Assembly: GCA_020055645.1 (NCBI GenBank)
Contig: JAECZT010000008.1
Coordinates: 558,001-622,000 of the forward strand
DNA: 64,000 bases
Direction: 5' to 3'
DNA from: Tomocerus qinae
Taxonomy: Eukaryota > Arthropoda > Collembola > Entomobryomorpha > Tomoceridae
Position 1 is the first letter of the stretch. The number at the start of each line of letters is the position of its first letter. Shown here piece by piece: positions 1 to 64,000 of the stretch. Below the pieces are notes generated by a model that saw only the letters and a list, made by a program, of their open reading frames with translations, made no database searches and had not been told where the DNA came from. Both the position numbers and the translations under genes were made by a program.

Positions 1-3000
1 ATTTTTCAAGAGTTGAAATTCAAGATTTAATGCTTGTACGAGCCAAAAAATTTAAAAATAACATTTAGCAGTTTTAATTGATTTTTTTTGAAACCTGTAG
101 GAGCCAATAAGCTTAAAAAATAATTTTGAACAGTTGAAATTCATGATTTAATACTTGTACGAGCCAAAAAGCTTAAAAAATAATTTTCAAGAGTTGAAAT
201 TCATGATTTAATACTTGTACGAGCCAAAAAGCTTAAAAAAATAATTTTCAAGAGTTGAAATTCATGATTTAATACTTGTACGAGGCAAAAAGCTTAAAAA
301 ATAATTTTCAAGAGTTGAAATTCATGATTTAATACTTGTACGAGCCAATAAGCTTAAAAAATAATTTTGAAGAGTTAAAATTCATGATTTAATACTTGTA
401 CGAGCCAAAAAGCTTAAAAAATAATTTTCAAGAGTTGAAATTCATGATTTAATACTTGTACGAGCCAAAAAGCTTAAAAAATAATTTTCAAGAGTTGAAA
501 TTCATGATTTAATACTTGTACGAGGCAAAAAGCTTAAAAAATAATTTTCAATGGTTGAAATTCATGATTTAATACTTGTACGAGCCAAAAAGCTTAAAAA
601 ATAATTTTCAACAGTTGAAATTCATGATTTAATACTTGTACGAGCCAAAAAGCTTAAAAAAATAATTTTCAAGAGTTGAAATTCATGATTTAATACTTGT
701 ACGAGGCAAAAAGATTAAAAAATAATTTTCAAGAGTTGAAATTCATGATTTAATACTTGTACGAGCCAAAAAGGTTAAAAATATTATTTAGCAGTTGTAA
801 TTGATTTTTTTGAAACTTGTACGAGGCAAAAATCTTAAAAAATATTTTTCAAGAGTTGAAATTCAAGATTTAATGCTTGTACGAGCCAAAAAATTTAAAA
901 ATAACATTTAGCAGTTTTAATTGATTTTTTTTGAAACCTGTAGGAGCCAAAAAGCTTAAAAAATAATTTTCAAGAGTTGAAATTCAAGATTTAATACTTG
1001 TACGAGCCAAAAAGCTTAAAAAATAATTTTCAAGAGTTGAAATTCATGATTTAATACTTGTACGAGCCAATAAGCTTAAAAAATAATTTTGAACAGTTGA
1101 AATTCATGATTTAATACTTGTACGAGCCAAAAAGCTTAAAAAATAATTTTCAAGAGTTAAAATTCATGATTTAATACTTGTACGAGCTAAAAAGCTTAAA
1201 AATAACATTTAGCAGTTTTAATTGATTTTTTTGAAACGTGTACGAGCCAAAAAGCTTAAAAAATAATTTTCAAGAGTTGAAATTCATGATTTAATACTTG
1301 TACGAGGCAAAAAGCTTAAAAAATAATTTTGAAGAGTTAAAATTCATGATTTAATACTTGTACGAGCCAAAAAGCTTAAAAAATAATTTTCAAGAGTTGA
1401 AATTCATGATTTAATACTTGTACGAGGCAAAAAGCTTAAAAAATATTTTTCAAGAGTTGAAATTCAAGATTTAATGCTTGTACGAGCCAAAAAATTTAAA
1501 AATAACATTTACCAGTTTTAATTAATTTTTTTGAAACTTGTACGAGCCAAAAAGTTTAAAAATAACATTTAGCAGTTTTATTTGATTTTTTTTGAAACCT
1601 GTAGGAGCCAAAAAGCTTAAAAAATAGTTTTCAAGAGTTGAAATTCATGATTTAATACTTGTACGAGCCAAAAAGCTTAAAAAATAATTTTCAAGAGTTG
1701 AAATTCATGATTTAATTTTGTACGAGCCAATAAGCTTAAAAAATCATTTTGAAGAGTTGAAATTCATGATTTAATACTTGTACGAGCCAAAAAGCTTAAA
1801 AAATAATTTTCAACAGTTGAAATTCATGATTTAATACTTGTACGAGCCAAAAAGCTTAAAAAATAATTTTCAAGAGTTGAAATTCATGATTTAAGACTTG
1901 TACGAGCCAAAAAGCTTAAAAAATAATTTTCAAGAGTTGAAATTCATGATTTAATACTTGTATGAGGCAAAAAGCTTAAAAAATAATTTTGAAGAGTTGA
2001 AATTCATGATTTAATACTTGTACGAGCCAAAAAGTTTAAAAAATATTTTTCAACAGTTGAAATTCATGATTTAATACTTGTACGAGGCAAAAAGCTTAAA
2101 AAATAATTTTCAATGGTTGAAATTCATGATTTAATACTTGTACGAGCCAAAAAGCTTAAAAAATAATTTTCAACAGTTGAAATTCATGATTTAATACTTG
2201 TACGAGCCAAAAAGCTTAAAAAATAATTTTCAAGAGTTGAAATTCATGATTTAATACTTGTACGAGGCAAAAAGATTAAAAAATAATTTTCAAGAGTTGA
2301 AATTCATGATTTAATACTTGTACGAGCCAAAAAGCTTAAAAATATTATTTAGCAGTTTTAATTGATTTTTTTGAAACTTGTACGAGCCAAAAAGCTTAAA
2401 AAATAATTTTCAAGAGTTGAAATTCATGATTTAATACTTGTACGAGGCAAAAAGCTTAAAAAATAATTTTGAAGAGTTAAAATTCATGATTTAATACTTG
2501 TACGAGCCAAAAAGCTTAAAAAATAATTTTCAAGAGTTGAAATTCATGATTTAATACTTGTACGAGGCAAAAAGCTTAAAAAATATTTTTCAAGAGTTCA
2601 AATTCAAGATTTAATGCTTGTACGAGCCAAAAAATTTAAAAATAACATTTACCAGTTTTAATTAATTTTTTTGAAACTTGTACGAGCCAAAAAGTTTAAA
2701 AATAACATTTAGCAGTTTTATTTGATTTTTTTTGAAACCTAAAGGAGCCAAAAAGCTTAAAAAATAGTTTTCAAGAGTTGAAATTCATGATTTAATACTT
2801 GTACGAGCCAAAAAGCTTAAAAAATAATTTTCAAGAGTTGAAATTCATGATTTAATACTTGTATGAGGCAAAAAGCTTAAAAAATAATTTTGAAGAGTTG
2901 AAATTCATGATTTAATACTTGTACGAGACAAAAAAATTAAAAAATAATTTTCAATGGTTGAAATTCATGATTTAATACTTGTACGAGCTAAAAAGCTTAA

Positions 3001-3840
3001 AAATAACATTTAGCAATTTTAATTGATTTTTTTGAAACTTGTACGAGCCAATAAGCTTAAAAAATAATATTGAAGAGTTGAAATTCATGATTTAATACTT
3101 GTATGAGGCGAAATGCTTAAAAAATAATTTTCAAGTGTTGAAATTCATGATTTAATACTTGTACGAGGCAAAAAGCTTAAAAAATATTTTTCAAGAGTTG
3201 AAATTCAAGATTTAATGCTTGTACGAGCCAAAAAATTTAAAAATTACATTTACCAGTTTTAATTAATTTTTTTGAAACTTGTACGAGCCAAAAAGTTTAA
3301 AAATAACATTTAGCAGTTTTATTTGATTTTTTTTGAAACCTGTACGAGCCAAAAAGCTTAAAAAATAATTTTCAAGAGTTGAAATTCATGATTTAATTTT
3401 GTACGAGCCAATAAGCTTAAAAAATAATTTTCAAGAGTTGAAATTCATGATTTAAGACTTGTACGAGCCAAAAAGCTTAAAAAATAATTTTCAAGAGTTG
3501 AAATTCATGATTTAATACTTGTATGAGGCAAAAAGCTTAAAAAATAATATTGAAGAGTTGAAATTCATGATTTAATACTTGTATGAGGCGAAATGCTTAA
3601 AAAATAATTTTCAAGTGTTGAAATTCATGATTTAATACTTGTACGAGGCAAAAAGCTTAAAAAATATTTTTCAAGAGTTGAAATTCAAGATTTAATGCTT
3701 GTACGAGCCAAAAAATTTAAAAATTACATTTACCAGTTTTAATTAATTTTTTTGAAACTTGTACGAGCCAAAAAGTTTAAAAATAACATTTAGCAGTTTT
3801 ATTTGATTTTTTTTGAAACCTGTAGGAGCCAAAAAGCTTA
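1..3840 (+). repeat. Related higher-order block (repeat distance about 4.98 kb)
   Basis: Bases 1 to about 2820 recur at 4977 to about 7796 with a constant offset of 4,976 bp, including a run with one extra A at 236 and 5212. After about 3000 the offset becomes 5,094 bp, because two monomers present at 7800-8040 are missing here. This makes a third, older or rearranged version of the block described at 5639 and 12781. Its left end lies outside the window. Confidence 0.85.
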
Positions 3841-5638
3841 AAAAATAATTTTCAAGAGTTGAAATTCATGATTTAATACTTGTACGAGCCAAAAAGCTTA
3901 AAAAATAATTTTCAAGAGTTGAAATTCATGATTTAATACTTGTACGAGGCAAAAATCTTAAAAAATATTTTTCAAGAGTTGAAATTCAAGATTTAATGCT
4001 TGTACGAGCCAAAAAATTTAAAAATAACATTTAGCAGTTTTAATTGAACCTGTAGGAGCCAATAAGCTTAAAAAATAATTTTGAACAGTTGAAATTCATG
4101 ATTTAATACTTGTACGAGCCAAAAAGCTTAAAAAATAATTTTCAAGAGTTGAAATTCATGATTTAATACTTGTACGAGGCAAAAAGCTTAAAAAATAATT
4201 TTCAAGAGTTGAAATTCATGATTTAATACTTGTACGAGGCAAAAAGCTTAAAAAATAATTTTCAAGAGTTGAAATTCATGATTTAATACTTGTACGAGGC
4301 AAAAATCTTAAAAAATATTTTTCAAGAGTTGAAATTCAAGATTTAATGCTTGTACGAGCCAAAAAATTTAAAAATAACATTTAGCAGTTTTAATTGATTT
4401 TTTTGAAACCTGTAGGAGCCAAAAAGCTTAAAAAATAATTTTCAAGAGTTGAAATTCAAGATTTAATACTTGTACGAGCCAAAAAGCTTAAAAAATAATT
4501 TTCAAGAGTTGAAATTCATGATTTAATACTTCTACAAACCAATAAGCTTAAAAAATAATTTTGAACAGTTGAAATTCATGATTTAATACTTGTACGAGCC
4601 AAAAAGCTTAAAAAATAATTTTCAAGAGTTGAAATTCATGACTTAATACTTGTAGGAGCCAAAAAGCTTAAAAAATAATTTTCAAGAGTTAAAATTCATG
4701 ATTTAATACTTGTACGAGCTAAAAAGCTTAAAAATAACATTTAGCAGTTTTAATTGATTTTTTTGAAACTTGTACGAGCCAAAAAGCTTAAAAAATAATT
4801 TTCAAGAGTTGAAATTCATGATTTAATACTTGTACGAGGCAAAAAGCTTAAAAAATAATTTTGAAGAGTTAAAATTCATGATTTAATACTTGTACGAGCC
4901 AAAAAGCTTAAAAAATAATTTTCAAGAGTTGAAATTCATGATTTAATACTTGTACGAGGCAAAAATCTTAAAAAATATTTTTCAACAGTTGAAATTCAAG
5001 ATTTAATGCTTGTACGAGCCAAAAAATTTAAAAATAACATTTAGCAGTTTTAATTGATTTTTTTTGAAACCTGTAGGAGCCAATAAGCTTAAAAAATAAT
5101 TTTGAACAGTTGAAATTCATGATTTAATACTTGTACGAGCCAAAAAGCTTAAAAAATAATTTTCAAGAGCTGAAATTCATGATTTAATACTTGTACGAGC
5201 CAAAAAGCTTAAAAAAATAATTTTCAAGAGTTGAAATTCATGATTTAATACTTGTACGAGGCAAAAAGCTTAAAAAATAATTTTCAAGAGTTGAAATTCA
5301 TGATTTAATACTTGTACGAGCCAATAAGCTTAAAAAATAATTTTGAAGAGTTAAAATTCATGATTTAATACTTGTACGAGCCAAAAAGCTTAAAAAATAA
5401 TTTTCAAGAGTTGAAATTCATGATTTAATACTTGTACGAGCCAAAAAGCTTAAAAAATAATTTTCAAGAGTTGAAATTCATGATTTAATACTTGTACGAG
5501 GCAAAAAGCTTAAAAAATAATTTTCAATGGTTGAAATTCATGATTTAATACTTGTACGAGCCAAAAAGCTTAAAAAATAATTTTCAACAGTTGAAATTCA
5601 TGATTTAATACTTGTACGAGCCAAAAAGCTTAAAAAAA

Positions 5639-8600
5639 TAATTTTCAAGAGTTGAAATTCATGATTTAATACTTGTACGAGGCAAAAAGATTAAAAAATA
5701 ATTTTCAAGAGTTGAAATTCATGATTTAATACTTGTACGAGCCAAAAAGCTTAAAAATATTATTTAGCAGTTGTAATTGATTTTTTTGAAACTTGTACGA
5801 GGCAAAAATCTTAAAAAATATTTTTCAAGAGTTGAAATTCAAGATTTAATGCTTGTACGAGCCAAAAAATTTAAAAATAACATTTAGCAGTTTTAATTGA
5901 TTTTTTTTGAAACCTGTAGGAGCCAAAAAGCTTAAAAAATAATTTTCAAGAGTTGAAATTCAAGATTTAATACTTGTACGAGCCAAAAAGCTTAAAAAAT
6001 AATTTTCAAGAGTTGAAATTCATGATTTAATACTTGTACGAGCCAATAAGCTTAAAAAATAATTTTGAACAGTTGAAATTCATGATTTAATACTTGTACG
6101 AGCCAAAAAGCTTAAAAAATAATTTTCAAGAGTTAAAATTCATGATTTAATACTTGTACGAGCTAAAAAGCTTAAAAATAACATTTAGCAGTTTTAATTG
6201 ATTTTTTTGAAACGTGTACGAGCCAAAAAGCTTAAAAAATAATTTTCAAGAGTTGAAATTCATGATTTAATACTTGTACGAGGCAAAAAGCTTAAAAAAT
6301 AATTTTGAAGAGTTAAAATTCATGATTTAATACTTGTACGAGCCAAAAAGCTTAAAAAATAATTTTCAAGAGTTGAAATTCATGATTTAATACTTGTACG
6401 AGGCAAAAAGCTTAAAAAATATTTTTCAAGAGTTAAAATTCAAGATTTAATGCTTGTACGAGCCAAAAAATTTAAAAATAACATTTACCAGTTTTAATTA
6501 ATTTTTTTGAAACTTGTACGGGCCAAAAAGTTTAAAAATAACATTTAGCAGTTTTATTTGATTTTTTTTGAAACCTGTAGGAGCCAAAAAGCTTAAAAAA
6601 TAGTTTTCAAGAGTTGAAATTCATGATTTAATACTTGTACGAGCCAAAAAGCTTAAAAAATAATTTTCAAGAGTTGAAATTCATGATTTAATTTTGTACG
6701 AGCCAATAAGCTTAAAAAATAATTTTGAAGAGTTGAAATTCATGATTTAATACTTGTACGAGCCAAAAAGCTTAAAAAATAATTTTCAACAGTTGAAATT
6801 CATGATTTAATACTTGTACGAGCCAAAAAGCTTAAAAAATAATTTTCAAGAGTTGAAATTCATGATTTAAGACTTGTACGAGCCAAAAAGCTTAAAAAAT
6901 AATTTTCAAGAGTTGAAATTCATGATTTAATACTTGTATGAGGCAAAAAGCTTAAAAAATAATTTTGAAGAGTTGAAATTCATGATTTAATACTTGTACG
7001 AGCCAAAAAGTTTAAAAAATATTTTTCAACAGTTGAAATTCATGATTTAATACTTGTACGAGGCAAAAAGCTTAAAAAATAATTTTCAATGGTTGAAATT
7101 CATGATTTAATACTTGTACGAGCCAAAAAGCTTAAAAAATAATTTTCAACAGTTGAAATTCATGATTTAATACTTGTACGAGCCAAAAAGCTTAAAAAAT
7201 AATTTTCAAGAGTTGAAATTCATGATTTAATACTTGTACGAGGCAAAAAGATTAAAAAATAATTTTCAAGAGTTGAAATTCATGATTTAATACTTGTACG
7301 AGCCAAAAAGCTTAAAAATATTATTTAGCAGTTTTAATTGATTTTTTTGAAACTTGTACGAGCCAAAAAGCTTAAAAAATAATTTTCAAGAGTTGAAATT
7401 CATGATTTAATACTTGTACGAGGCAAAAAGCTTAAAAAATAATTTTGAAGAGTTAAAATTCATGATTTAATACTTGTACGAGCCAAAAAGCTTAAAAAAT
7501 AATTTTCAAGAGTTGAAATTCATGATTTAATACTTGTACGAGGCAAAAAGCTTAAAAAATATTTTTCAAGAGTTGAAATTCAAGATTTAATGCTTGTACG
7601 AGCCAAAAAATTTAAAAATAACATTTACCAGTTTTAATTAATTTTTTTGAAACTTGTACGAGCCAAAAAGTTTAAAAATAACATTTAGCAGTTTTATTTG
7701 ATTTTTTTTGAAACCTAAAGGAGCCAAAAAGCTTAAAAAATAGTTTTCAAGAGTTGAAATTCATGATTTAATACTTGTACGAGCCAAAAAGCTTAAAAAA
7801 TAATTTTCAAGAGTTGAAATTCATGATTTAATTTTGTACGAGCCAATAAGCTTAAAAATAATTTTCAAGAGTTGAAATTCATGATTTAATACTTGTACGA
7901 GCCAAAAAGCTTAAAAAATAATTTTCAAGAGTTGAAATTCATGATTTAATACTTGTAAGAGGCAAAAAGCTTAAAAAACAATATTCAAGAGTTGAAATTC
8001 ATGATTTAATACTTGTACGAGACAAAAAAATTAAAAAATAATTTTCAATGGTTGAAATTCATGATTTAATACTTGTACGAGCTAAAAAGCTTAAAAATAA
8101 CATTTAGCAATTTTAATTGATTTTTTTGAAACTTGTACGAGCCAATAAGCTTAAAAAATAATATTGAAGAGTTGAAATTCATGATTTAATACTTGTATGA
8201 GGCGAAATGCTTAAAAAATAATTTTCAAGTGTTGAAATTCATGATTTAATACTTGTACGAGGCAAAAAGCTTAAAAAATATTTTTCAAGAGTTGAAATTC
8301 AAGATTTAATGCTTGTATGAGCCAAAAAATTTAAAAATTACATTTACCAGTTTTAATTAATTTTTTTGAAACTTGTACGAGCCAAAAAGTTTAAAAATAA
8401 CATTTAGCAGTTTTATTTGATTTTTTTTGAAACCTGTAGGAGCCAAAAAGCTTAAAAAATAATTTTCAAGAGTTGAAATTCATGATTTAATACTTGTACG
8501 AGCCAAAAAGCTTAAAAAATAATTTTCAAGAGTTGAAATTCATGATTTAATTTTGTACGAGCCAATAAGCTTAAAAAATAATTTTCAAGAGTTGAAATTC

Positions 8601-10524
8601 ATGATTTAAGACTTGTACGAGCCAAAAAGCTTAAAAAATAATTTTCAAGAGTTGAAATTCATGATTTAATACTTGTATGAGGCAAAAAGCTTAAAAAATA
8701 ATTTTGAAGAGTTGAAATTCATGATTTAATACTTGTACGAGACAAAAAAATTAAAAAATAATTTTCAATGGTTGAAATTCATGATTTAATACTTGTACGA
8801 GCTAAAAAGCTTAAAAATAACATTTAGCAATTTTAATTGATTTTTTTGAAACTTGTACGAGCCAATAAGCTTAAAAAATAATATTGAAGAGTTGAAATTC
8901 ATGATTTAATACTTGTATGAGGCGAAATGCTTAAAAAATAATTTTCAAGTGTTGAAATTCATGATTTAATACTTGTACGAGGCAAAAAGCTTAAAAAATA
9001 TTTTTCAAGAGTTGAAATTCAAGATTTAATGCTTGTACGAGCCAAAAAATTTAAAAATTACATTTACCAGTTTTAATTAATTTTTTTGAAACTTGTACGA
9101 GCCAAAAAGTTTAAAAATAACATTTAGCAGTTTTATTTGATTTTTTTTGAAACCTGTAGGAGCCAAAAAGCTTAAAAAATAATTTTCAAGCGTTGAAATT
9201 CATGATTTATTACTTGTACGAGCCAAAAAGCTTAAAAAATAATTTTCAAGAGTTGAAATTCATGATTTAATGCTTGTACGAGCCAAAAAATTTAAAAATA
9301 ACATTTAGCAGTTTTAATTGATTTTTTTTGAAACCTGTAGGAGCCAATAAGCTTAAAAAATAATTTTGAAGAGTTGAAATTCATGATTTAATACTTGTAC
9401 GAGCCAAAAAGCTTAAAAAATAATTTTCAAGAGTTGAAATTCATGATTTAATACTTGTACGAGGCAAAAAGCTCAAAAAAATAATTTTCAAGAGTTGAAA
9501 TTCATGATTTAATACTTGTACGAGGCAAACAGCTTAAAAAATAATTTTCAAGAGTTGAAATTCATGATTTAATACTTGTACGAGCCAATAAGCTTAAAAA
9601 ATAATTTTGAAGTGTTAAAATTCATGATTTAATACTTGTACGAGCCAAAAAGCTTAAAATATAATTTTCAAGAGTTGAAATTCATGATTTAATACTTGTA
9701 CGAGCCAAAAAGCTTAAAAAATAATTTTCAAGAGTTGAAATTCATGATTTAATACTTGTACGAGGCAAAAAGCTTAAAAAATAATTTTCAAGAGTTGAAA
9801 TTCATGATTTAATACTTGTACGAGGCAAAAAGCTTAAAAAATAATTTTCAAGAGTTGAAATTCATGATTTAATACTTGTACGAGGCAAAAAGCTTAAAAA
9901 ATATTTTTCAAGAGTTGAAATTCAAGATTTAATGCTTATACGAGCCAAAAAATTTTAAAATAACGTTTACCAGTTTTAATTAATTTTTTTGAAACTTGTA
10001 CGAGCCAAAAAGTTTAAAAATAACATTTAGCAGTTTTAATTATTTTTTAAACTTGTACGAGCCAAAAAGCTTAAAAAATAATTTTCAAGAGTTGAAATTC
10101 ATGATTTAATACTTGTACGAGCCAAAAAGCTTAAAAAATAATTTTCAAGAGTTGAAATTCATGATTTAATTTTGTACGAGCCAATAAGCTTAAAAAATAA
10201 TTTTCAAGAGTTGAAATTCATGATTTAATACTTGTACGAGCCAAAAAGCTTAAAAAATAATTTTCAAGAGTTGAAATTCATGATTTAATACTTGTACGAG
10301 CCAAAAAGCTTAAAAAAATAATTTTCAAGAGTTGAAATTCATGATTTAATACTTGTACGAGGCAAAAAGCTTAAAAAATAATTTTCAAGAGTTGAAATTC
10401 ATGATTTAATTTTGTACGAGCCAATAAGCTTAAAAAATAATTTTCAAGAGTTGAAATTCATGATTTAATACTTGTATGAGGCAAAAAGCTTAAAAAATAA
10501 TTTTCAAGAGTTGAAATTCATGAT
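5639..10524 (+). repeat. Large higher-order block, copy 1 (repeat distance about 7.14 kb)
   Basis: This stretch of about 81 monomers is repeated almost base for base at 12781-17669, at an offset of 7,141-7,145 bp. Rare private variants are shared at the same relative positions: the TTATTTAGCAGTTGTAATTG monomer (5759 and 12901), the AACGTTTACC monomer (9963 and 17104), GAGGCGAAATGC monomers, and the AAACCTAAAGGAGCC junction (7706 and 14847). Differences are few, for example a GGGCC versus GAGCC change near 6520, a handful of substitutions at 7860-8040, and a B monomer 4 bp shorter at 10021. Agreement continues up to the gap at 17670, so the second copy may be longer than what is visible. Such identity implies recent amplification by unequal exchange or gene conversion. 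Confidence 0.9.
8041..9200 (+). repeat. Nested 720-bp duplication (12 monomers)
   Basis: The series with TTTTCAATGG, GAGCTAAAAAGC, a B monomer with AGCAATTTTAATTG, and GAGGCGAAATGC begins at 8041 and again at 8761, exactly 720 bp later. The same nested pair is present in the sister block at 15181 and 15901, so the 720-bp duplication predates the copying of the 7.14-kb block. Confidence 0.85.
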
Positions 10525-12780
10525 TTAATACTTGTACGAGCCAAAAAGCTTAAAAAATAATTTTGAAGAATTGAAATTCATGATTTAATACTTGTACGAG
10601 GCAAAAAGCTTAAAAAATAATTTTCAAGAGTTGAAATTCATGATTTAAGACTTGTACGAGCCAACAAGCTTAAAAAATAATTTTCAAGAGTTAAAATTCA
10701 TGATTTAATACTTCTATGAGGCAAAAAGCTTAAAAAATAATTTTCAAGAGTTGAAATTCATGATTTAATACTTGTACGAGCCAATAAGCTTAAAAAATAA
10801 TTTTGAAGAATTGAAATTCATGATTTAATACTTGTACGAGGCAAAAAGCTTAAAAAATAATTTTCAAGAGTTGAAATTCATGACTTAATACTTGTAGGAG
10901 CCAACAAGCTTAAAAAATAATTTTCAAGAGTTAAAATTCATGATTTAATACTTCTATGAGGCAAAAAGCTTAAAAAATAATTTTCAAGAGTTGAAATTCA
11001 TGATTTAATACTTGTACGAGCCAATAAGCTTAAAAAATAATTTTGAAGAGTTGAAATTCATGATTTAATACTTGCACGAGTTAATAAGCTTAAAAAATAA
11101 TTTTCAAGAGTTGAAATTCATGATTTAATACTTGTACGAGGCAAAAAGATTAAAAAAAAATTTTCAATGGTTGAAATTCATGATTTAATACTTGTACGAG
11201 CTAAAAAGCTTAAAAATAACATTTAGCAGTTCTAATTGATTTTTTTGAAACTTGTACGAGCCAAAAAGCTTAAAAAATAATTTTCAAGAGTTGAAATTCA
11301 TGATTTAATACTTGTACGAGGCAAAAATCTTAAAAAATATTTTTCAAGAGTTGAAATTCAAGATTTAATGCTTATACGAGCCAAAAAATTTAAAAATAAC
11401 ATTTAGCAGTTTTAATTGATTTTTTTTGAAACCTGTAGGAGCCAAAAAGCTTAAAAAATAATTTTCAAGAGTTGAAATTCAAGATTTAATACTTGTACGA
11501 GCCAAAAAGCTTAAAAAATAATTTTCAAGAGTTGAAATTCATGATTTAATTTTGTACGAGCCAATAAGCTTAAAAAATAATTTTGAAGAGTTGAAATTCA
11601 TGATTTAATACTTGTACGAGCCAAAAAGCTTAAAAAAATAATTTTCAAGAGTTGAAATTCATGATTTAATACTTGTACGAGGCAAAAAGCTTAAAAAATA
11701 ATTTTCAAGAGTTGAAATTCACGATTTAAGACTTGTACGAGCCAACAAGCTTAAAAAAATAATTTTCAAGAGTTGAAATTCATGATTTAATACTTGTACA
11801 AGGCAAAAAGCTTAAAAAATAATTTTCAATGGTTGAAATTCATGATTTAATACTTGTACGAGCTTAAAAGCTTGAAAATAACATTTAGCAGTTTTAATTG
11901 ATTTTTTTGAAACTTGTACGAGCCAAAAAGCTTAAAAAATAATTTTCAAGAGTTGAAATTCATGATTTAATACTTGTACGAGGCAAAAAGCTTAAAAAAT
12001 ATTTTTCAAGAGTTGAAATTCAAGATTTAATGCTTGTACGAGCCAAAAAATTTAAAAATAACATTTACCAGTTTTAATTAATTTTTTTGAAACTTGTACG
12101 AGCCAAAAGGTTTAAAAATAATATTTAGCACTTTTATTTGATTTTTTTTGAAACCTTTAGGAGCCAAAAAGCTTAAAAAATAATTTTCAAGAGTTGAAAT
12201 TCATGATTTAATACTTGTACGAGCCAAAAAGCTTAAAAAACAATTTTCAAGAGTTAAAATTCATGATTTAATACTTGTACGAGCTCAAAAGCTTAAAAAA
12301 TAATTTTGAAGAGTTGAAATTCATGATTTAATACTTGTACGAGCCAAAAAGCTTAAAAAATAATTTTCAAGAGTTAAAATTCATGATTTAATACTTCTAT
12401 GACGCAAAAAGCTTAAAAAATAATTTTCAAGAGTTGAAATTCATGATTTAATACTTGTACGAGCCAATAAGCTTAAAAAATAATTTTGAAGAATTGAAAT
12501 TCATGATTTAATACTTGTACGAGGCAAAAAGCTTAAAAAATAATTTTCAAGAGTTGAAATTCATGACTTAATACTTGTAGGAGCCAACAAGCTTAAAAAA
12601 TAATTTTCAAGAGTTAAAATTCATGATTTAATACTTCTATGAGGCAAAAAGCTTAAAAAATAATTTTCAAGAGTTGAAATTCATGATTTAATACTTGTAC
12701 GAGCCAATAAGCTTAAAAAATAATTTTGAAGAGTTGAAATTCATGATTTAATACTTGCACGAGTTAATAAGCTTAAAAAA

Positions 12781-18682: not shown

Positions 18683-18754
18683 AAAAATAATTTTCAAGAG
18701 TTGAAATTCATGATTTAATACTTGTACGAGGCAAAAAGCTTAAAAAATAATTTT

Positions 18755-40807: not shown

Positions 40808-40813
40808 TTGTAC
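40808..40813 (+). repeat. Target site duplication TTGTAC, right
   Basis: Matches TTGTAC at 39455-39460. It continues into GAGCCAAAAAGCTTCAAAAA, exactly the sequence that follows CTTGTAC in the uninterrupted copies at about 37060 and 60692. Confidence 0.93.
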
Positions 40814-52500: not shown

Positions 52501-52899
52501 GTTGAAATTCATGATTTAATACTTGTACGAGCCAAAAAGCTTAAAATATAATTTTCAAGAGTTGAAATTCATGATTTAATACTTGTACGAGCCAAAAAGC
52601 TTAAAAAAATAATTTTCAAGAGTTGAAATTCATGATTTAATACTTGTACGAGGCAAAAAGTTTAAAAAATAATTTTCAATGGTTGAAATTCATTATTTAA
52701 TACTTGTACGAGCCAAAAAGCTTAAAAATACAATTTAGCAGTTTTAATTGATTTTTTTTGAAACTTGTACGAGCCAAAAAGCTTAAAAAATAATTTTCAA
52801 GAGTTGAAATTCATGATTTAATACTTGTACGAGCCAATAAGCTTAAACAATAATTATGAAGAGTTGAAATTCATGATTTAATACTTGTACGAGCCAAAA

Positions 52900-55800
52900 A
52901 GCTTAAAAATAACATTTAGCAGTGTTAATTGATTTTTTTTGAAACTTGTACGAGGCAAAAAGCTTAAAAAGTAATTTTCAAGAGTTGAAATTCATGATTT
53001 AATACTTGTACGAGCCAAAAAGCTTAAAAAATAATTTTCAAGAGTTGAAATTCATGATTTAATACTTGTACGAGCCAAAAAGCTTAAAAAATAATTTTCA
53101 AGAGTTGAAATTCATGATTTAATACTTGTACGAGCCAAAAAGCTTAAAATATAATTTTCAAGAGTTGAAATTCATGATTTAATACTTGTACGAGCCAAAA
53201 AGCTTAAAAAATAATTTTCAAGAGTTGAAATTCATGATTTAATACTTGTACGAGGCAAAAAGCTTAAAAAATAATTTTCAAGTGTTGAAATTCATGATTT
53301 AATACTTGTACGAGCCAAAAAGCTTAAAAATAACATTTAGCAGTTTTAATTGATTTTTCTAAACTTGTACGAGCCAAAAAGCTTAAAAAATAATTTTCAA
53401 GAGTTGAAATTCATGATTTAATACTTGTACGAGCTAATAAGCTTAAAAAATAATTTTCAAGAGTTGAAATTCATGATTTAATAATTGTACGAGGCAAAAA
53501 GCTTAAAAAATAAATTTCAATGGTTGAAATTCATTATTTAATACTTGTACGAGCCAAAAAGCTTAAAAATAACATTTAGCAGTTTTAATTGATTTTTTTT
53601 GAAACTTGTAAGAGGCAAAAAGCTTAAAAAATAATTTTCAAGTGTTGAAATTCATGATTTAATACTTGTACGAGCCAAAAAGCTTAAAAAATAATTTTCA
53701 AGAGTTGAAATTCATGATTTAATACTTGTACGAGCCAAAAAGCTTAAAATATAATTTTCAAGAGTTGAAATTCATGATTTAATACTTGTACGAGCCAAAA
53801 AGCTTAAAAAATAATTTTCAAGAGTTGAAATTCATGATTTAATACTTGTACGAGGCAAAAAGCTTAAAAAATAATTTTCAAGTGTTGAAATTCATGATTT
53901 AATACTTGTACGAGCCAAAAAGCTTAAAAATAACATTTAGCAGTTTTAATTGATTTTTTTTAAACTTGTAAGAGGCAAAAAGCTTAAAAAATAATTTTCA
54001 AGTGTTGAAATTCATGATTTAATACTTGTACGAGCCAAAAAGCTTAAAAAATAATTTTCAAGAGTTGAAATTCATGATTTAATACTTGTACGAGCCAAAA
54101 AGCTTAAAATATAATTTTCAAGAGTTGAAATTCATGATTTAATACTTGTACGAGCCAAAAAGCTTAAAAAAATAATTTTCAAGAGTTGAAATTCATGATT
54201 TAATAATTGTACGAGGCAAAAAGCTTAAAAAATAATTTTCAATGGTTGAAATTCATTATTTAATACTTGTACGAGCCAAAAAATTTAGAAATAACATTTA
54301 GCAGTTTTAATTGATTTTTTTTGAAACTTGTACGAGCCAAAAAGCTTAAAAAATAATTTTCAAGAGTTGAAATTCATGATTTAATACTTGTACGAGCCAA
54401 AAAGCTTAAAAAATATTTTTCAAGAGTTGAAATTCATGATTTAATACTTGTACGAGCCAAAAAGCTTAAAAAATATTTTTCAAGAGTTGAAATTCATGAT
54501 TTAATACTTGTACGAGCCAAAAAGCTTAAAAAATAATTTTCAAGAGTTGAAATTCATGATTTAATACTTGTACGAGCCAAAAAGCTTAAAATATAATTTT
54601 CAAGAGTTGAAATTCATGATTTAATACTTGTACGAGCCAAAAAGCTTAAAAAAATAATTTTCAAGAGTTGAAATTCATGATTTAATAATTGTACGAGGCA
54701 AAAAGCTTAAAAAATAGATTTCAATGGTTGAAATTCATTATTTAATACTTGTACGAGCCAAAAAGCTTAAAAATAACATTTAGCAGTTTTAATTGATTTT
54801 TTTTTGAAACTTGTACGAGGCAAAAAGCTTAAAAAATAATTTTCAAGAGTTGAAATTCATGATTTAATACTTGTACGAGCCAAAAAGCTTAAAAAATAAT
54901 TTTCAAGAGTTGAAATTCATGATTTAATACTTGTACGAGCCAATAAGCTTAAACAATAATTATGAAGAGTTGAAATTCATGATTTAATACTTGTACGAGC
55001 CAAAAAGCTTAAAAATAACATTTAGCAGTGTTAATTGATTTTTTTTGAAACTTGTACGAGGCAAAAAGCTTAAAAAGTAATTTTCAAGAGTTGAAATTCA
55101 TGATTTAATACTTGTACGAGCCAAAAAGCTTAAAAAATAAATTTCAATGGTTGAAATTCATTATTTAATACTTGTACGAGCCAAAAAGCTTAAAAATAAC
55201 ATTTAGCAGTTTTAATTGATTTTTTTTGAAACTTGTAAGAGGCAAAAAGCTTAAAAAATAATTTTCAAGTGTTGAAATTCATGATTTAATACTTGTACGA
55301 GCCAAAAAGCTTAAAAAATAATTTTCAAGAGTTGAAATTCATGATTTAATACTTGTACGAGCCAAAAAGCTTAAAATATAATTTTCAAGAGTTGAAATTC
55401 ATGATTTAATACTTGTACGAGCCAAAAAGCTTAAAAAAATAATTTTCAAGAGTTGAAATTCATGATTTAATAATTGTACGAGGCAAAAAGCTTAAAAAAT
55501 AATTTTCAATGGTTGAAATTCATTATTTAATACTTGTACGAGCCAAAAAATTTAGAAATAACATTTAGCAGTTTTAATTGATTTTTTTTGAAACTTGTAC
55601 GAGCCAAAAAGCTTAAAAAATAATTTTCAAGAGTTGAAATTCATGATTTAATACTTGTACGAGCCAAAAAGCTTAAAAAATATTTTTCAAGAGTTGAAAT
55701 TCATGATTTAATACTTGTACGAGCCAAAAAGCTTAAAAAATATTTTTCAAGAGTTGAAATTCATGATTTAATACTTGTACGAGCCAAAAAGCTTAAAAAA

Positions 55801-58310
55801 TAATTTTCAAGAGTTGAAATTCATGATTTAATACTTGTACGAGCCAAAAAGCTTAAAATATAATTTTCAAGAGTTGAAATTCATGATTTAATACTTGTAC
55901 GAGCCAAAAAGCCTAAAAAAATAATTTTCAAGAGTTGAAATTCATGATTTAATAATTGTACGAGGCAAAAAGCTTAAAAAATAGATTTCAATGGTTGAAA
56001 TTCATTATTTAATACTTGTACGAGCCAAAAAGCTTAAAAATAACATTTAGCAGTTTTAATTGATTTTTTTTTGAAATTTGTACGAGGCAAAAAGCTTAAA
56101 AAATAATTTTCAAGAGTTGAAATTCATGATTTAATACTTGTACGAGCCAAAAAGCTTAAAAAATAATTTTCAAGAGTTGAAATTCATGATTTAAAACTTG
56201 TACGAGCCAATAAGCTTAAACAATAATTATGAAGAGTTGAAATTCATGATTTAATACTTGTACGAGCCAAAAAGCTTAAAAATAACATTTAGCAGTGTTA
56301 ATTGATTTTTTTTGAAACTTGTACGAGGCAAAAAGCTTAAAAAGTAATTTTCAAGAGTTGAAATTCATGATTTAATACTTGTACGAGCCAAAAAGCTTAA
56401 AAAATAATTTTCAAGAGTTGAAATTCATGATTTAATACTTGTACGAGCCAAAAAGCTTAAAAAATAATTTTCAAGAGTTGAAATTCATGATTTAATACTT
56501 GTACGAGCCAAAAAGCTTAAAAAATAATTTTCAAGAGTTGAAATTCATGATTTAATACTTGTACGAGCTAATAAGCTTAAAAAATAATTTTCAAGAGTTG
56601 AAATTCATGATTTAATAATTGTACGAGGCAAAAAGCTTAAAAAATAAATTTCAATGGTTGAAATTCATTATTTAATACTTGTACGAGCCAAAAAGCTTAA
56701 AAATAACATTTAGCAGTTTTAATTGATTTTTTTTGAAACTTGTAAGAGGCAAAAAGCTTAAAAAATAATTTTCAAGTGTTGAAATTCATGATTTAATACT
56801 TGTACGAGCCAAAAAGCTTAAAAAATAATTTTCAAGAGTTGAAATTCATGATTTAATACTTGTACGAGCCAAAAAGCTTAAAAATAACATTTAGCAGTTT
56901 TAATTGAATTTTTTTGAAACTTGTACGAGCCAAAAAGCTTAAAAAATAATTTTCAAGAGTTGAAATTCATGATTTAATACTTGTACGAGCCAATAAGCTT
57001 AAACAATAATTATGAAGAGTTGAAATTCATGATTTAATACTTGTACGAGCCAAAAAGCTTAAAAATAACATTTAGCAGTTTTAATTGACTTTTTTTGAAA
57101 CTTGTACGAGGCAAAAAGCTTAAAAAATAATTTTCAAGAGTTGAAATTCATGATTTAATACTTGTACGAGCCAAAAAGCTTAAAGATAGCATTTAGCAGA
57201 TTAAATTGATTTTTTTTGAATATTGTACGAGCCAAAAAGCTTAAAAAATAATTTTCAAGAGTTGAAATTCATGATTTAATACTTGCACGAGTTAATAACA
57301 TTAAAAAATAATTTTGAAGAGTTGAAATTCATGATTTAATACTTGTACGAGCCAAAAAGCTTAAAAATAACATTTAGCAGTTTTAATTGATTTTTTTTGA
57401 AACTTGTACGAGCCAAAAAGCTTAAAAAATAATTTTCAAGAGTTGAAATTCATGATTTAATACTTGTACGAGCTAAAAAGCTTAAAAATAACATTTAGCA
57501 GTTTTAATTGATTTTTTTGAAACTGGTACGAGCCAAAAAGTTTAAAAATAACATTTAGCAGTTGAAACCTGTAGGAGCCAAAAAGCTTAAAAAATAATTT
57601 TCAAGAGTTGAAATTCATGATTTAATACTTGTACGAGCCAAAAAGCTTAAAAAATAATTTTCAAGAGTTGAAATTCATGATTTAATACTTGTACGAGCCA
57701 AAAAGCTTAAAAAATAATTTTCAAGAGTTGAAATTCATGATTTAATACTTTTACGAGCCAAAAAGCTTAAAAAATAATTTTCAAGAGTTGAAATTCATGA
57801 TTTAATACTTGTACGAGCCAAAAAGCTTAAAAAATAATTTTCAAGAGTTGAAATTCATGATTTAATACTTGTACGAGCCAATAAGCTTAAACAATAATTA
57901 TGAAGAGTTGAAATTCATGATTTAATACTTGTACGAGCCAAAAAGCTTAAAAATAACATTTAGCAGTGTTAATTGATTTTTTTTGAAACTTGTACGAGGC
58001 AAAAAGCTTAAAAAGTAATTTTCAAGAGTTGAAATTCATGATTTAATACTTGTACGAGCCAAAAAGCTTAAAAAATAAATTTCAATGGTTGAAATTCATT
58101 ATTTAATACTTGTACGAGCCAAAAAGCTTAAAAATAACATTTAGCAGTTTTAATTGATTTTTTTTGAAACTTGTAAGAGGCAAAAAGCTTAAAAAATAAT
58201 TTTCAAGTGTTGAAATTCATGATTTAATACTTGTACGAGCCAAAAAGCTTAAAAAATAATTTTCAAGAGTTGAAATTCATGATTTAATACTTGTACGAGG
58301 CAAAAAGCTT
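52900..58310 (+). repeat. 1.27-kb and related higher-order repeats
   Basis: The variant AGTGTTAATTG occurs at 52921, 55027, 56294 and 57965. The variant AAATTTAGAAATAAC occurs at about 54281 and 55548, spaced 1,267 bp. AATAGATTTCAATGG marks the same unit at 54714 and about 55981. The spacings 2,106, 1,267 and 1,671 bp show units gaining and losing whole monomers. Confidence 0.78.
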
Positions 58311-60361
58311 AAAAAATAATTTTCAAGACTTGAAAGTCATGATTTAATACTTGTACGAGCCAAAAAGCTTCAAAAATATATTTCAAGAGTTGAAATTCAT
58401 GATTTAATACTTGTACGAGCCAATAAGCTTAAAAAATAATTTTCAATAGTTGAAATTCATGATTTAATAATTGTACGAGGCAAAAAGCTTAAAAAATAAT
58501 TTTCAATGGTTGAAATTCATTATTTAATACTTGTACGAGCCAATAAGCTTAAAAAATAATTTTGAAGAGTTGAAATTCATGATTTAAGACTTGTACGAGC
58601 CAACAAGCTTAAAAAATAATTTTCAAGAGTTGAAATTCATGATTTAATACTTGTACGAGGCAAAAAGCTTAAAAAATAATTTTCAAGAAATGAAATTCAT
58701 GATTTAATACTTGTACGAGGCAAAAAAGCTTAAAAAATATTTTTCAAGAGTTAAAATTCATGATTTAATACTTGCACGAGTTAATAAGCTTAAAAAATAA
58801 TTTTGAAGAGTTAAAATTCATGATTTAATACTTGTACGAGCCAAAAAGCTTAAAAATAACATTTAGCAGTTTTAATTGATTTTTTTTGAAACTTGTACGA
58901 GCCAAAAAGCTTAAAAAATAATTTTCAAGAGTTGAAATTCATGACTTAATACTTGTACGAGCCAATAAGTTTAAAAAATAATTTTCAAGACTTGGAATTC
59001 ATGATTTAATACTTGTACGAGCCAATAAGCTTAAAAAATAATTTTCAAGACTTGGAATTCATGATTTAATACTTGCACGAGTTAATAAGCTTAAAAAATA
59101 ATTTTAAAGAGTTGAAATTCATGATTTAATACTTGTACGAGCCAAAAAGCTTAAAAATAACAATTAGCGGTTTTATTTGATTTTTTTTGAAACTTGTACG
59201 AGCCAAAAAGCTTAAAAAATAATTTTCAAGAGTTGAAATTCATGATTTAATAATTGTACGAGGCAAAAAGCTTAAAAAATAATTTTCAATGGTTGAAATT
59301 CATTATTTATTACTTGTACGAGCCAATAAGCTTAAAAAATAATTTTGAAGAGGTGAAATTCATGATTTAAGACTTGTACGAGCCAACAAGCTTAAAAAAT
59401 AATTTTCAAGAGTTGAAATTCATGATTTAATACTTGTACGAGGCAAAAAGCTTAAAAAATATTTTTCAAGAGTTGAAATTCAAGATTTAATGCTTGTACG
59501 AGCCAAAAAATTTAAAAATAACATTTACCAGTTTTAATTAATTTTTTTGAAACTTGTACGAGCCAAAAAGTTTAAAAATAGAATTTAGCAGTTTTAATTG
59601 ATTTTTTTTGAAACCTGTAGGAGCCAAAAAGCTTAAAAAATAATTTTCAAGAGTTGAAATTCATGATTTAATACTTGTACGAGGCAAAAAGCTTAAAAAA
59701 TAATTTTCAAGACTTGAAATTCATGATTTAATACTTGTACGAGCCAAAAAGCTTCAAAAATATATTTCAAGAGTTGAAATTCATGATTTAATACTTGTAT
59801 GAGCCAATAAGCTTAAAAAATAATTTTCAATAGTTGAAATTCATGATTTAATAATTGTACGAGGCAAAAAGCTTAAAAAATAATTTTCAATGGTTGAAAT
59901 TCATTATTTAATACTTGTACGAGCCAATAAGCTTAAAAAATAATTTTGAAGAGTTGAAATTCATGATGTAAGACTTGTACGAGCCAACAAGCTTAAAAAA
60001 TAATTTTCAAGAGTTGAAATTCATGATTTAATACTTGTACGAGGCAAAAAGCTTAAAAAATAATTTTCAAGAAATGAAATTCATGATTTAATACTTGTAC
60101 GAGGCAAAAAGCTTAAAAAATATTTTTCAAGAGTTAAAATTCATGATTTAATACTTGCACGAGTTAATAAGCTTAAAAAATAATTTTGAAGAGTTGAAAT
60201 TCATGATTTAATACTTGTACGAGCCAAAAAGCTTAAAAATAACATTTAGCAGTTTTAATTGATTTTTTTGAAACTTGTACGAGCCAAAAAGTTTAAAAAT
60301 AACATTTAGCATTTTTAATTGATTTTTTTGAAACTTGTAGGAGCCAAAAAGCTTAAAAAAT

Positions 60362-62769
60362 AATTTTCAAGAGTTGGAATTCATGATTTAATACTTGTAC
60401 GAGGCAAAAAGCTTAAAAAATATTTTTCAAGAGTTGAAATTCAAGATTTAATGCTTGTACGAGCCAAAAAATTTAAAAATAACATTTACCAGTTTTAATT
60501 AATTTTTTTGAAACTTGTACGAGCCAAAAAGTTTAAAAATAGAATTTAGCAGTTTTAATTGATTTTTTTTGAAACCTGTAGGAGCCAAAAAGCTTAAAAA
60601 ATAATTTTCAAGAGTTGAAATTCATGATTTAATACTTGTACGAGGCAAAAAGCTTAAAAAATAATTTTCAAGACTTGAAATTCATGATTTAATACTTGTA
60701 CGAGCCAAAAAGCTTCAAAAATATATTTCAAGAGTTGAAATTCATGATTTAATACTTGTATGAGCCAATAAGCTTAAAAAATAATTTTCAATAGTTGAAA
60801 TTCATGATTTAATAATTGTACGAGGCAAAAAGCTTAAAAATAATTTTCAATGGTTGAAATTCATTATTTAATACTTGTACGAGCCAATAAGCTTAAAAAA
60901 TAATTTTGAAGAGTTGAAATTCATGATGTAAGACTTGTACGAGCCAACAAGCTTAAAAAATAATTATCAAGAGTTGAAATTCATGATTTAATACTTGTAC
61001 GAGGCAAAAAGCTTAAAAAATAATTTTCAAGAAATGAAATTCATGATTTAATACTTGTACGAGGCAAAAAGCTTAAAAAATATTTTTCAAGAGTTAAAAT
61101 TCATGATTTAATACTTGCACGAGTTAATAAGCTTAAAAAATAATTTTGAAGAGTTGAAATTCATGATTTAATACTTGTACGAGCCAAAAAGCTTAAAAAT
61201 AACATTTAGTAGTTTTAATTGATTTTTTTGAAACTTGTACGAGCCAAAAAGTTTAAAAATAACATTTAGCATTTTTAATTGATTTTTTTGAAACTTGTAG
61301 GAGCCAAAAAGCTTAAAAAATAATTTTCAAGAGTTGGAATTCATGATTTAAAACTTGTACGAGGCAAAAAGCTTAAAAAATATTTTTCAAGAGTTGAAAT
61401 TCAAGATTTAATGCTTGTACGAGCCAAAAAATTTAAAAATAACATTTACCAGTTTTAATTAATTTTTTTGAAACTTGTACGAGCCAAAAAAATTAAAAAT
61501 AACATTTAGCAGTTTTAATTGATTTTTTTTGAAACCTGTAGGAGCCAAAAAGCTTAAAAAATATTTTTCAAGTGTTGAAATTCAAGATTTAATACTTGTA
61601 CGAGCCAAAAAATTTAAAAATAACATTTACCAGTTTTAATTAATTTTTTTGAAACTTGTACGAGCCAAAAAGTTTAAAAATAACATTTAGCAGTTGAAAC
61701 CTGTAGGAGCCAAAAAGCTTAAAAAAATAATTTTCAAGAGTTAAAATTCATGGTTTAATACTTGTACGAGCCAAAAAGCTTAAAAAATAATTAACAAGAG
61801 TTGAAATTCATGATTTAATACTTGTACGAGCCAAAAAGCTTAAAAAATAAATTTCAAGAGTTGAAATTCATGATTTAATACTTGTTCGAGGCAAAAAGCT
61901 TAAAAAAATATTTTTCAAGAGTTGAAATTCAAGATTTAAAGCTTGTACGAGCCAACAAATTTAAAAATAACATTTAGCAGTTTTAATTGATTTTTTTGAA
62001 ACTTGTACGAGCCAAAGAGTTTAAGAATAACATTTAGCATTTTTAATTGATTTTTTTGAAACTTGTAGGAGCCAAAAAGCTTAAAAAATAATTTTCAAGA
62101 CTTGAAATTCATGATTTAATACTTGTACCAGGCAAAAAGCTTAAAAAATGATTTTCAAGAAATGAAATTCATGATTTATTACTTGTACGAGGCAAAAAGC
62201 TTAAAACATAATTTTCAAGAGTTGGAATTCATGATTTAATACTTGTACGAGGCAAAAAGCTTAAAAAATATTTTTCAAGAGTTGAAATTCAAGATTTAAT
62301 GCTTGTACGAGCCAAAAAATTTAAAAATAACATTTACCAGTTTTAATTAATTTTTTTGAAACTTGTACGAGCCAAAAAGTTTAAAAATAGAATTTAGCAG
62401 TTTTAATTGATTTTTTTTGAAACCTGTAGGAGCCAAAAAGCTTAAAAAATAATTTTCAAGAGTTGGAATTCATGATTTAATACTTGTACGAGGCAAAAAG
62501 CTTAAAAAATAATTTTCAATGGTTGAAATTCATTATTTAATACTTGTACGAGCCAATAAGCTTAAAAAATAATTTTGAAGAGTTGAAATTCATGATTTAA
62601 GACTTGTACGAGCCAACAAGCTTAAAAAATAATTTTCAAGAGTTGAAATTCATGATTTAATACTTGTACGAGGCAAAAAGCTTAAAAAATAATTTTCAAG
62701 AAATGAAATTCATGATTTAATACTTGTACGAGGCAAAAAGCTTAAAAAATATTTTTCAAGAGTTAAAAT
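60362..62769 (+). repeat. Segmental duplication, empty-site copy, cut by the gap
   Basis: Near-identical partner of 39121-42780 without the transposon. Differences from it are few: one A lost in a run at 60837, a T-run length at about 61220, AAGAATAAC at 62022, AAAATGATTTTC at 62146, and one type-A monomer fewer near 62690. It supplies a clean pre-insertion allele at about 60692. Confidence 0.9.
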
Positions 62770-62869
62770 NNNNNNNNNNNNNNNNNNNNNNNNNNNNNNN
62801 NNNNNNNNNNNNNNNNNNNNNNNNNNNNNNNNNNNNNNNNNNNNNNNNNNNNNNNNNNNNNNNNNNNNN
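62770..62869. other. Assembly gap (100 N)
   Basis: Exactly 100 undetermined bases, again the conventional size for an unknown gap. The satellite reads forward on the left and reverse on the right. Confidence 0.99.
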
Positions 62870-64000
62870 GGCTCGTTAAAGTATTAAATCATGAATTTCA
62901 ACTCTTGAAAATTATTTTTTAAACTTTTTGCCTCGTACAAGTTTAAAAAATAATTAAAACTGTTGAATGTTATTTTTAAGCTTTTTGGCTCGTATAAGTA
63001 TTAAATCATGAATTTCAACTCTTGAAAATTATTTTTTAAACTTTTTGGCTCGTACAAGTATTAAATCATGAATTTCAACTCCTGAAAATTATTTTTTAAA
63101 CTTTTTTGCTCGTACAAGTATTAAATCATGAATTTCAACTCTTGAAAATTATTTTTTAAACTTTTTGCCTGGTACAAGTTTAAAAAATAATTAAAACTGT
63201 TGAATATTATTTTTAAGCCTTTTAACTCGAACAATTATTACATCTTGAATTTCAACTCTTGAAAATTATTTTTTAAACTTTTTGCCTCGTACAAGTTTAA
63301 AAAATAATTTAAACTGTGGAATGTTATTTTTAAGCTTTTTGGCTCGTATAAGTATTAAATCATGAATTTCAACTCTTGAAAATTATTTTTAAGCTTTTTG
63401 GCTCGTACAAGTATTAAATCATGAATTTCAACTCTTGAAAATTATTTTTTAAGCTTTTTGGCCCGTACAAGTATTATATCATGATTATCAATTCTTGAAA
63501 ATTATTTACTAAGCTTTTTGCCTCGTACAAGTTTAAAAAATAATTAAAACTGTTGAATATTATTTTTAAGCCTTTTGGCTCGTACAATTACTAAATCTTA
63601 TATTTCAACTCTTGAAAATTATTTTTTAAGCTTTTTGCCTCGTACAAGTTTAAAAAATAATTAAAACTGTTGAATGTTATTTTTAAGCTTTTTGGCTCGT
63701 ATAAGTATTAAATCATGAATTTCAACTCTTGAAAATTATTTTTTAAGCTTTTTAGCTCGCACAAGTATTAAATCATGAATATCAAATCTTGAAAATTATT
63801 TTTTAAACTTTTTGCCTCGTACAAGTTTAAAAAATAATTAAACCTGTTAAAAGTTGTTTCTAAGCTTTTTGGCTCGTACAAGTATTAAGTCATGAATTTC
63901 AACTCTTGAAAATTACTTTTTAAGCTTTTTGCCTCGTACAAGTTTAAAAAATAATTGAAACTGTTATTATTTTTAAGCCTTTTGGCTCGTACAATTATTA
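62870..64000 (-). repeat. 60-bp satellite array in reverse orientation
   Basis: About 19 monomers whose plus strand reads CTCGTACAAG, the reverse complement of the usual box. Type A appears as AATCATGAATTTCAACTC. The B type is a distinct subfamily of about 57 bp, which on the minus strand reads AACATTCAACAGTTTTAATT and ends ATTTTTTAAA. Monomers here are more divergent from one another than in the main array (for example TTACATCTTGAATTTC, GATTATCAATTC, GGTTCTAAG-like changes, AAAGTTGTTTCTAAGC). That fits an older, less homogenised array edge. The array runs off the right end of the window. Confidence 0.94.

What the first reader, a model, noticed from the sequence alone, without database searches (positions are those of the whole stretch)
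1..64000. A 10-bp box, CTTGTACGAG, is the only part common to all satellite families and orientations
Types A and B of the 60-bp satellite have unrelated right halves. The 78-bp satellite shares almost nothing with either. Yet all three begin with CTTGTACGAG, which holds the palindrome GTAC. A short box preserved across otherwise different satellites is what is known for the CENP-B box of alpha satellites. Here it could be a binding site for a centromere or heterochromatin protein, or a recombination hot spot. That it is functional is my inference; the sharing is seen directly.
Basis: partly seen in the sequence, partly recalled or inferred. Interest (0 to 1): 0.72.

Follow-up and report, generated by a model that had tools for sequence, protein, structure and literature searches.

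The report
Shared block in related satellite repeats
A ten-letter DNA word really does recur in these tandem repeats of an unidentified genome, but mostly because the repeats are related to each other, and within most of the families it is no better preserved than its surroundings.

Summary
CTTGTACGAG is real: 779 exact copies in the window, 0 expected; 50,494 in the 334-Mb genome, 307 for the reversed pattern. It heads the 60-bp units (A, B), a 57-bp form B' and the 78-bp units. It is not 'the only part in common': without it, A, B and B' still align (z 3.5-6.2) and 78b aligns with all three (z 2.3-3.6), though the window's own form 78a hardly does. The families look like branches of one satellite. 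Within families the box is no island: among 10-bp windows it ranks 30 of 60 (A), 8 of 60 (B), 55 of 57 (B') and 34 of 78 (78b); 148 of 394 B' units keep it exactly. CENP-B-box likeness is at chance. Open: it is the longest invariant run across five consensus units, and one class of opposite-strand 60/78 joints, 36 copies, lies at or beside it. Verdict: a satellite superfamily of a known kind, a modest lead on a joining site, no evidence for a centromere-protein site.

The parts
1..17669 (+). 60-bp satellite, types A (238 units) and B (57 units), box on + strand
17670..17769 (.). 100-N scaffold gap; the 60(+) to 78(-) switch falls here and is not read through
17770..18682 (-). 78-bp satellite array (13 units: 78a 9, 78b 4), box on - strand
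18676..18690 (.). read-through joint between 78-bp (-) and 60-bp (+) arrays, in an A/T stretch, not at a box
18683..39469 (+). 60-bp satellite, types A (245) and B (103); counts are for 18683-39464
39470..40798 (.). dispersed inverted-repeat transposon-like insert (ends CCTAGTATACCGACGCTC...) with about ten 64-bp internal repeats; interrupts the array, not part of it
40807..62769 (+). 60-bp satellite, types A (281), B (84), B' (1); counts are for 40809-62769
62770..62869 (.). 100-N scaffold gap; the 60(+) to 60(-) switch falls here
62870..64000 (-). 60-bp satellite with A (14) and the 57-bp type B' (7), box on - strand
33..42 (+). first of 779 exact copies of the box CTTGTACGAG (761 on +, 18 on -)

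Best explanation
The window lies inside a large satellite block built of one superfamily. An A/T-rich ancestral unit beginning with CTTGTACGAG gave rise to 60-bp (A, B), 57-bp (B') and 78-bp (78a, 78b) units, which were amplified and homogenised by unequal exchange and conversion. The box is shared mainly because it belongs to an inherited block: the box plus about 35 bp to its right. It catches the eye because it lies in the most G/C-rich part of a unit of about 24% G+C. Shown: sharing, relatedness outside the box, ordinary within-family conservation in A, B' and 78b. Inferred: the single ancestor, the exchange mechanism and the heterochromatic nature. A secondary and less certain role: because the box is nearly its own reverse complement (CT-GTAC-AG), it may serve as a short homology at which opposite-strand units are joined.
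For: Units align outside the box, in 78b also over the 35 bases to its right alone (p 0.003-0.006 against A, B, B'). B' bridges A and B. Within-family rank of the box is middling or poor in A, B' and 78b. 78b's T-run flank is better kept than its box (0.991 vs 0.972). Of 50,494 boxes only 516 are preceded by C or T (control 154); the rest are preceded by A or G, as in the known families, so no further large family is evident, though one with A or G there would be missed. No enrichment outside arrays, and the 30 of 34 isolated boxes that were examined have no satellite-like flanks (median score 17, background 16, true satellite 130). Blocks lie on C1 from about 82.775 to at least 82.80 Mb, on C3 at 51.34-51.55 Mb (contig end), at the start of C4, on C8, and at the sampled starts of 8 of 16 smaller contigs.
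Against: Across the five consensus units the box is the longest invariant run (10, next longest 4), which 9 of 20,000 column shuffles reach. G/C positions inside the box vary less than those outside it in A and B (0.954 vs 0.885; 0.989 vs 0.869), and in B only 24 of 5,000 base-matched position sets do as well (A 609, B' 3267, 78b 894 of 5,000). 78a by itself is not significantly like A or B' outside the box, and the 25 bases left of the box show no significant likeness between 60- and 78-bp units (p 0.22-0.58), although B and 78 both have a T-run there.
Confidence: 0.7

Rival explanations
1. The box is a short joining site: its near-palindrome lets opposite-strand units pair or recombine, creating mixed 60/78 higher-order units.
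For: On C3 a 60-type unit on + runs into a 78-type unit on - at CTTGTACAAG, a perfect palindrome (L069, L070). The 25-base joint pattern occurs 36 times (33 at the end of C3, 1 on C87, 2 on C90), while a somewhat more permissive pattern with the unrecombined CTTGTACGAG occurs 0 times. An A at box position 8 occurs in only 22 of 1865 A units. Motif-borne joints are published for Meloidogyne satellites (PMC3694981).
Against: The joint pattern was built round the box, so joints elsewhere in the unit could not be found by it. The 36 may be amplified copies of one event. The two bases after the box (GC 19, CC 9, CA 8) resemble the 60-bp side rather than the CTC that follows in 189 of 223 matches of the scan, so the cross-over may lie in the A-run a few bases on, in a unit that already had A at position 8. 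The other two read-through switches are not at the box. The reciprocal palindrome CTCGTACGAG has only 166 sites genome-wide (control 53) and none in the fetched sequence.
Confidence: 0.2
2. The box is a binding site for a sequence-specific centromere or heterochromatin protein, working like a CENP-B box and needed in only part of the units.
For: Invariance across the five consensus units. Near-dyad symmetry suits a dimer. In 3 of 12 arrays tested box-less units avoid being neighbours (win1, win2, L047: 1, 0 and 0 of 1000 shuffles as low), and a fourth leans that way (L044: 30 of 1000).
Against: Box no better kept than its flanks, on at least one side, in A, B' and 78b. No neighbour avoidance in 8 of 12 arrays, and runs of up to 6 box-less units; higher-order repeats alone can produce avoidance. 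No CENP-B-box likeness above chance. No binding protein is known. The CENP-C profile gave no match, though that search has no insect control and no control genome passed its cut-off.
Confidence: 0.08
3. The sharing is pure chance between unrelated satellites.
For: 78a, the window's own 78-bp form, has little likeness to A or B' outside the box.
Against: 0 copies of the box expected by chance in the window; 78b is like the 60-bp units outside the box, and 78a is plainly a form of 78b (z 12.0).
Confidence: 0.01

Closest known systems
Meloidogyne chitwoodi / M. fallax satellites with Box 1 (CENP-B-box-like) and Box 2 (PMC3694981; abstract and section 13 read)
   Same: Several diverged satellites of one genome share a short box inside a wider low-variability region; simple and higher-order arrays coexist; some joints between units fall at the shared motif.
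   Different: There Box 1 has 10-12 of 17 bases of the human CENP-B box in six of the sequences and lies in a low-variability domain; here likeness to that box is at chance and the box is not the least variable part within families.
Alpha satellite with the CENP-B box (recalled; box sequence taken from a PMC9673304 passage)
   Same: Tandem units with a short box that is intact in only part of the units.
   Different: Different sequence, no known binding protein, no chromatin data.
Tribolium madens TmSat1/TmSat2 (PMC13081366; passages read)
   Same: Related satellites intermingled in opposite orientations in putative pericentromeric blocks, with conserved transition zones.
   Different: Different satellites; here two of the window's three orientation changes are at assembly gaps, and the pericentromeric position is not shown.

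Membership tests
CENP-B-box satellites | 17-bp YTTCGTTGGAARCGGGA or its essential bases (the essential set is recalled) | tested here: not met
   best 8-9 of 17 in any 17-mer holding the box; 9-10 of 17 anywhere in the unit, reached by 181-464 of 500 shuffles; essential bases 5-6 of 9, reached by 141-481 of 500
CENP-B-box satellites | box less variable than the rest of the unit within the family | tested here: not met
   window rank 30/60, 8/60, 55/57, 34/78 and, on only 13 units, 37/78 for A, B, B', 78b, 78a; only B near the top
CENP-B-box satellites | CENP-B or another protein bound to the box | not testable with these tools
   needs pull-down or chromatin profiling
Meloidogyne-type box-sharing satellites | diverged satellites share a short box conserved above the rest between families | tested here: inconclusive
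   five-way alignment 9 of 20,000 shuffles; five of the six 60-against-78 pairs tested singly: 797 to 1576 of 5,000 (B'-78a not run)
Meloidogyne-type box-sharing satellites | joints between families fall at the box | tested here: inconclusive
   one joint class of 36 copies at or just beside the box, found with a pattern built round the box; 2 of 3 read-through strand switches not at it
centromeric satellite | one block per chromosome | tested here: inconclusive
   blocks seen on C1 (interior), C3 (end), C4 (start). The two subsampling patterns found none on C2 or C5, but they also missed the known blocks of C1 and C4, so this says little; sampled ends of C2 and C5 had none
centromeric satellite | CENP-A chromatin | not testable with these tools
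   no chromatin data

The most novel reading that the evidence does not exclude
CTTGTACGAG is a near-palindromic exchange site: breaks or pairing at GTAC join 60-bp and 78-bp units of opposite strand, leaving a perfect palindrome CTTGTACAAG at the joint, and each new satellite family is founded from such a joint. This would explain why the box is identical between family consensus units although it decays within them.
Probability: 0.12. Interest if true: 0.6.

Novelty: new member of a known kind. Interest (0 to 1): 0.3.

Why it matters
It shows that a word shared by several satellites of one genome need not be a functional box: common descent explains most of it, and within-family variation is the test that tells. 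What is left (identity between family consensus units, decay within families, a joint class at or beside the box) makes a concrete case for asking whether short near-palindromes seed new satellite families.

Tried and rejected
CENP-B-box likeness: at chance. Box enrichment outside satellites: none seen on the first 82.5 Mb of C1. Mealybug hypothesis for the organism, by a biotin-synthase profile: no match. CENP-C profile: no match at E <= 1, but only 2 candidates were scored, there is no insect control and no control genome passed the cut-off, so no conclusion. Paper searches for the box and for six unit fragments: of 52 papers holding the box 40 were listed, none with a satellite subject in the title or shown abstract start; for the fragments 2 papers, 1 listed, unrelated. 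Identifying the species by assembly size: 2 papers, neither fitting; the species stays unidentified. Paper search for 60- and 78-bp insect satellites: 0 papers. Searches gave listings only, from which three papers were opened. A first cut of 78-bp units by a left anchor mis-cut some units (distances of about 46 and 109) and used 219; its counts were superseded. Search for a higher-order repeat period by lag similarity: no single clear period in the window arrays.

Rows dropped before counting (identity under 0.7 or more than 8 gaps): A 51 of 1916, B 15 of 342, B' 8 of 402, 78b 12 of 275, 78a 9 of 22. The unit models used for cutting begin with the box, which favours the box slightly; the B', 78a and 78b models were read by eye from tool outputs. 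Higher-order repeats make units non-independent, so ranks and shuffles are descriptive. The five consensus units are really about two lineages, so its 9 of 20,000 overstates significance; the pairwise tests do not reach significance for 60 against 78, and they rest on gapped alignments.
Full report
What the window is. The window is part of contig C8 (1.16 Mb) of a 334-Mb genome in 115 contigs, of which the first five have 140, 72, 52, 34 and 24 Mb. The genome holds (TTAGG)n runs (184 + 216 hits of a 30-mer, 0 in the reversed control), which fits an arthropod; I did not identify the species. Almost the whole window is a 60-bp tandem repeat, with a 78-bp array at 17770-18682 and a transposon-like insert at 39470-40798. 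There are two 100-N gaps, at 17670-17769 and 62770-62869.

The box is real. CTTGTACGAG occurs 779 times in the window against a shuffle mean of 0. In the genome it occurs 50,494 times against 307 for the reversed pattern. The spacing on the + strand is mainly 60 bp (489 intervals), then 120 (99), 121 (52) and 61 (50).

It is not the only shared part. I cut the satellite parts of the window (5 stretches) and 23 stretches from 21 fetched loci into 2,957 units with five models: A 1916, B 342, B' 402, 78a 22, 78b 275. After removal of the box, global alignment of the consensus units against 2,000 dinucleotide shuffles gives z = 3.5 (A-B), 5.9 (A-B'), 6.2 (B-B'), 2.3 (A-78b), 3.6 (B-78b), 2.8 (B'-78b) and 12.0 (78a-78b). 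It gives only 0.8, 1.9 and 0.5 for A, B and B' against 78a. The 35 bases right of the box carry the likeness of 78b to the 60-bp units (p 0.003 to 0.006); the 25 bases to the left do not (p 0.22 to 0.58). B' (consensus ...AAAAATAATATTCAACAGTTTTAATTATTTTTTAAA) is an intermediate: its right half is significantly like both A's (z 3.2) and B's (z 4.7).

Within families the box is mostly ordinary. Box / left 15 / right 15 / rest of unit: A (1865 units kept, 20 arrays) 0.963/0.969/0.941/0.957; B (327) 0.991/0.983/0.927/0.956; B' (394) 0.926/0.968/0.936/0.951; 78b (263) 0.972/0.991/0.944/0.939. Box rank among all 10-bp windows: 30 of 60, 8 of 60, 55 of 57, 34 of 78; with each distinct unit counted once 31, 11, 53 and 27. 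Exact boxes: A 1334 of 1865, B 297 of 327, B' 148 of 394, 78b 201 of 263. Frequent broken forms are CCTGTAGGAG in A (68) and CTTATACGAG in B' (103). In its favour, G/C bases in the box vary less than other G/C bases in A and B, and in B only 24 of 5,000 base-matched position sets reach the box (A 609, B' 3267, 78b 894).

Between families it does stand out. In a five-way alignment of consensus units the box is ten invariant columns, the longest run elsewhere is four, and 9 of 20,000 column shuffles give a run of ten. This overstates the case, because the five units are about two lineages. Pairwise, 797 to 1576 of 5,000 shuffles reach the run through the box in the five pairs of 60- against 78-bp units that were tested.

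Where the box is in the genome. Of the 50,494 boxes only 516 are preceded by C or T (control 154), and the one CCTTGTACGAG copy read on C3 (L069) is in a 60-type unit; so I find no sign of a further large family, though one with A or G before the box would be missed. The blocks found are on C1 from about 82.775 to at least 82.80 Mb (78b), at the end of C3 (51.34-51.55 Mb, both families), at the first bases of C4, on C8, and at the first 300-400 bases of 8 of 16 smaller contigs sampled, one of which read as N. One block per large chromosome would suit a centromere-linked satellite but is not shown. Isolated boxes are at or under chance: 34 in the first 82.5 Mb of C1 against about 76 predicted from the control. 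The 30 of these 34 that were examined have no satellite-like flanks.

Joints. In the fetched sequence, a scan for neighbouring boxes of opposite strand less than 400 bases apart gave four switches on N gaps (two in the window, one each in L031 and L043) and three that are read through: window about 18682 (78(-) to 60(+), in an A/T stretch) and two in L069 on C3. One of these, 60(+) to 78(-), falls at CTTGTACAAG, a perfect palindrome that looks like the left half of a + box fused to the right half of a - box; L070, which begins two bases before it, shows the same right side. The 25-base joint pattern has 36 copies (33 on C3, 1 on C87, 2 on C90; spacers GC 19, CC 9, CA 8). A slightly more permissive pattern with CTTGTACGAG has none. 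Since A at box position 8 is rare in A units (22 of 1865), a cross-over inside GTAC is attractive. But the pattern was built round the box, so it could not find joints elsewhere; the two bases after the box look like the 60-bp side, so a cross-over in the A-run a few bases on, in a unit already bearing A, is not excluded; and all 36 may stem from one event. The reciprocal palindrome CTCGTACGAG has 166 sites (control 53), part of them in the C3 and C4 blocks; I could not read them, and there is none in the fetched sequence.

CENP-B. The best 17-mer containing the box matches 8-9 of 17 positions of the human CENP-B box; the best anywhere in the units, 9-10, is within shuffle expectation. A role like CENP-B's is not excluded by sequence, since a different protein could be involved, but nothing here points to one.

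Known relatives. In Meloidogyne chitwoodi and M. fallax, satellites of low mutual identity share a 17-bp Box 1, and some monomer transitions lie exactly at it (PMC3694981, abstract and section 13 read). Tribolium madens has intermingled related satellites in opposite orientations (PMC13081366, passages read). The present case resembles them in layout but lacks the within-family conservation of the box. Searches for the sequence itself in the paper library showed no satellite paper among the listed results (12 of 52 and 1 of 2 papers were not listed).

Verdict. The sharing is confirmed; the claims 'only part common' and 'specially preserved' are not. Best reading: one satellite superfamily with an inherited block, ordinary in kind, with a modest open lead that the near-palindromic box is a joining site.

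Noticed in passing
39470-40798: Insert with long inverted ends (CCTAGTATACCGACGCTC...) and about ten 64-bp internal repeats; 234 such ends genome-wide at up to 1 mismatch, many of the 100 listed as inward-facing pairs 0.4-3.5 kb apart: looks like an ordinary dispersed inverted-repeat transposon.
   Followed up: partly
39460-39469 and 40799-40816: Both flanks of that insert lie within about 10 bases of a box and part of a unit is missing between them, so the insertion was not clean.
   Followed up: no
L046 about 790-2375 (contig C8): A second inverted-repeat insert (ends GGGAACAAGGGGGAATCTCGA and a near copy) beside a box-like sequence, with a possible TACAATT duplication on both sides.
   Followed up: no
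17670-17769 and 62770-62869: 100-N gaps coincide with orientation changes, so these inversions may be scaffolding artefacts; the same holds in L031 and L043.
   Followed up: yes
L031, L032 and 17770-18682: The 78-bp unit holds AAAAAAATCATTTTTTT, a 17-bp palindrome around one C close to the box; the A/T-tract flank is better conserved than the box itself.
   Followed up: partly
L038 3654-9997 (contig C8): A different 166-bp satellite, richer in G+C, sits on the same contig.
   Followed up: no
L033 2875-4847 (C1 near 82.853 Mb): A 19-bp tandem array TGGAAACTATTTCCAATCC, 99% uniform, near the C1 78-bp block.
   Followed up: no
L039-L041, L044-L048 versus the window, L037 and L043: B' (57 bp) largely replaces B (60 bp) in 8 of the 10 C8 loci cut, so A/B' and A/B arrays look like separate territories.
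   Followed up: partly
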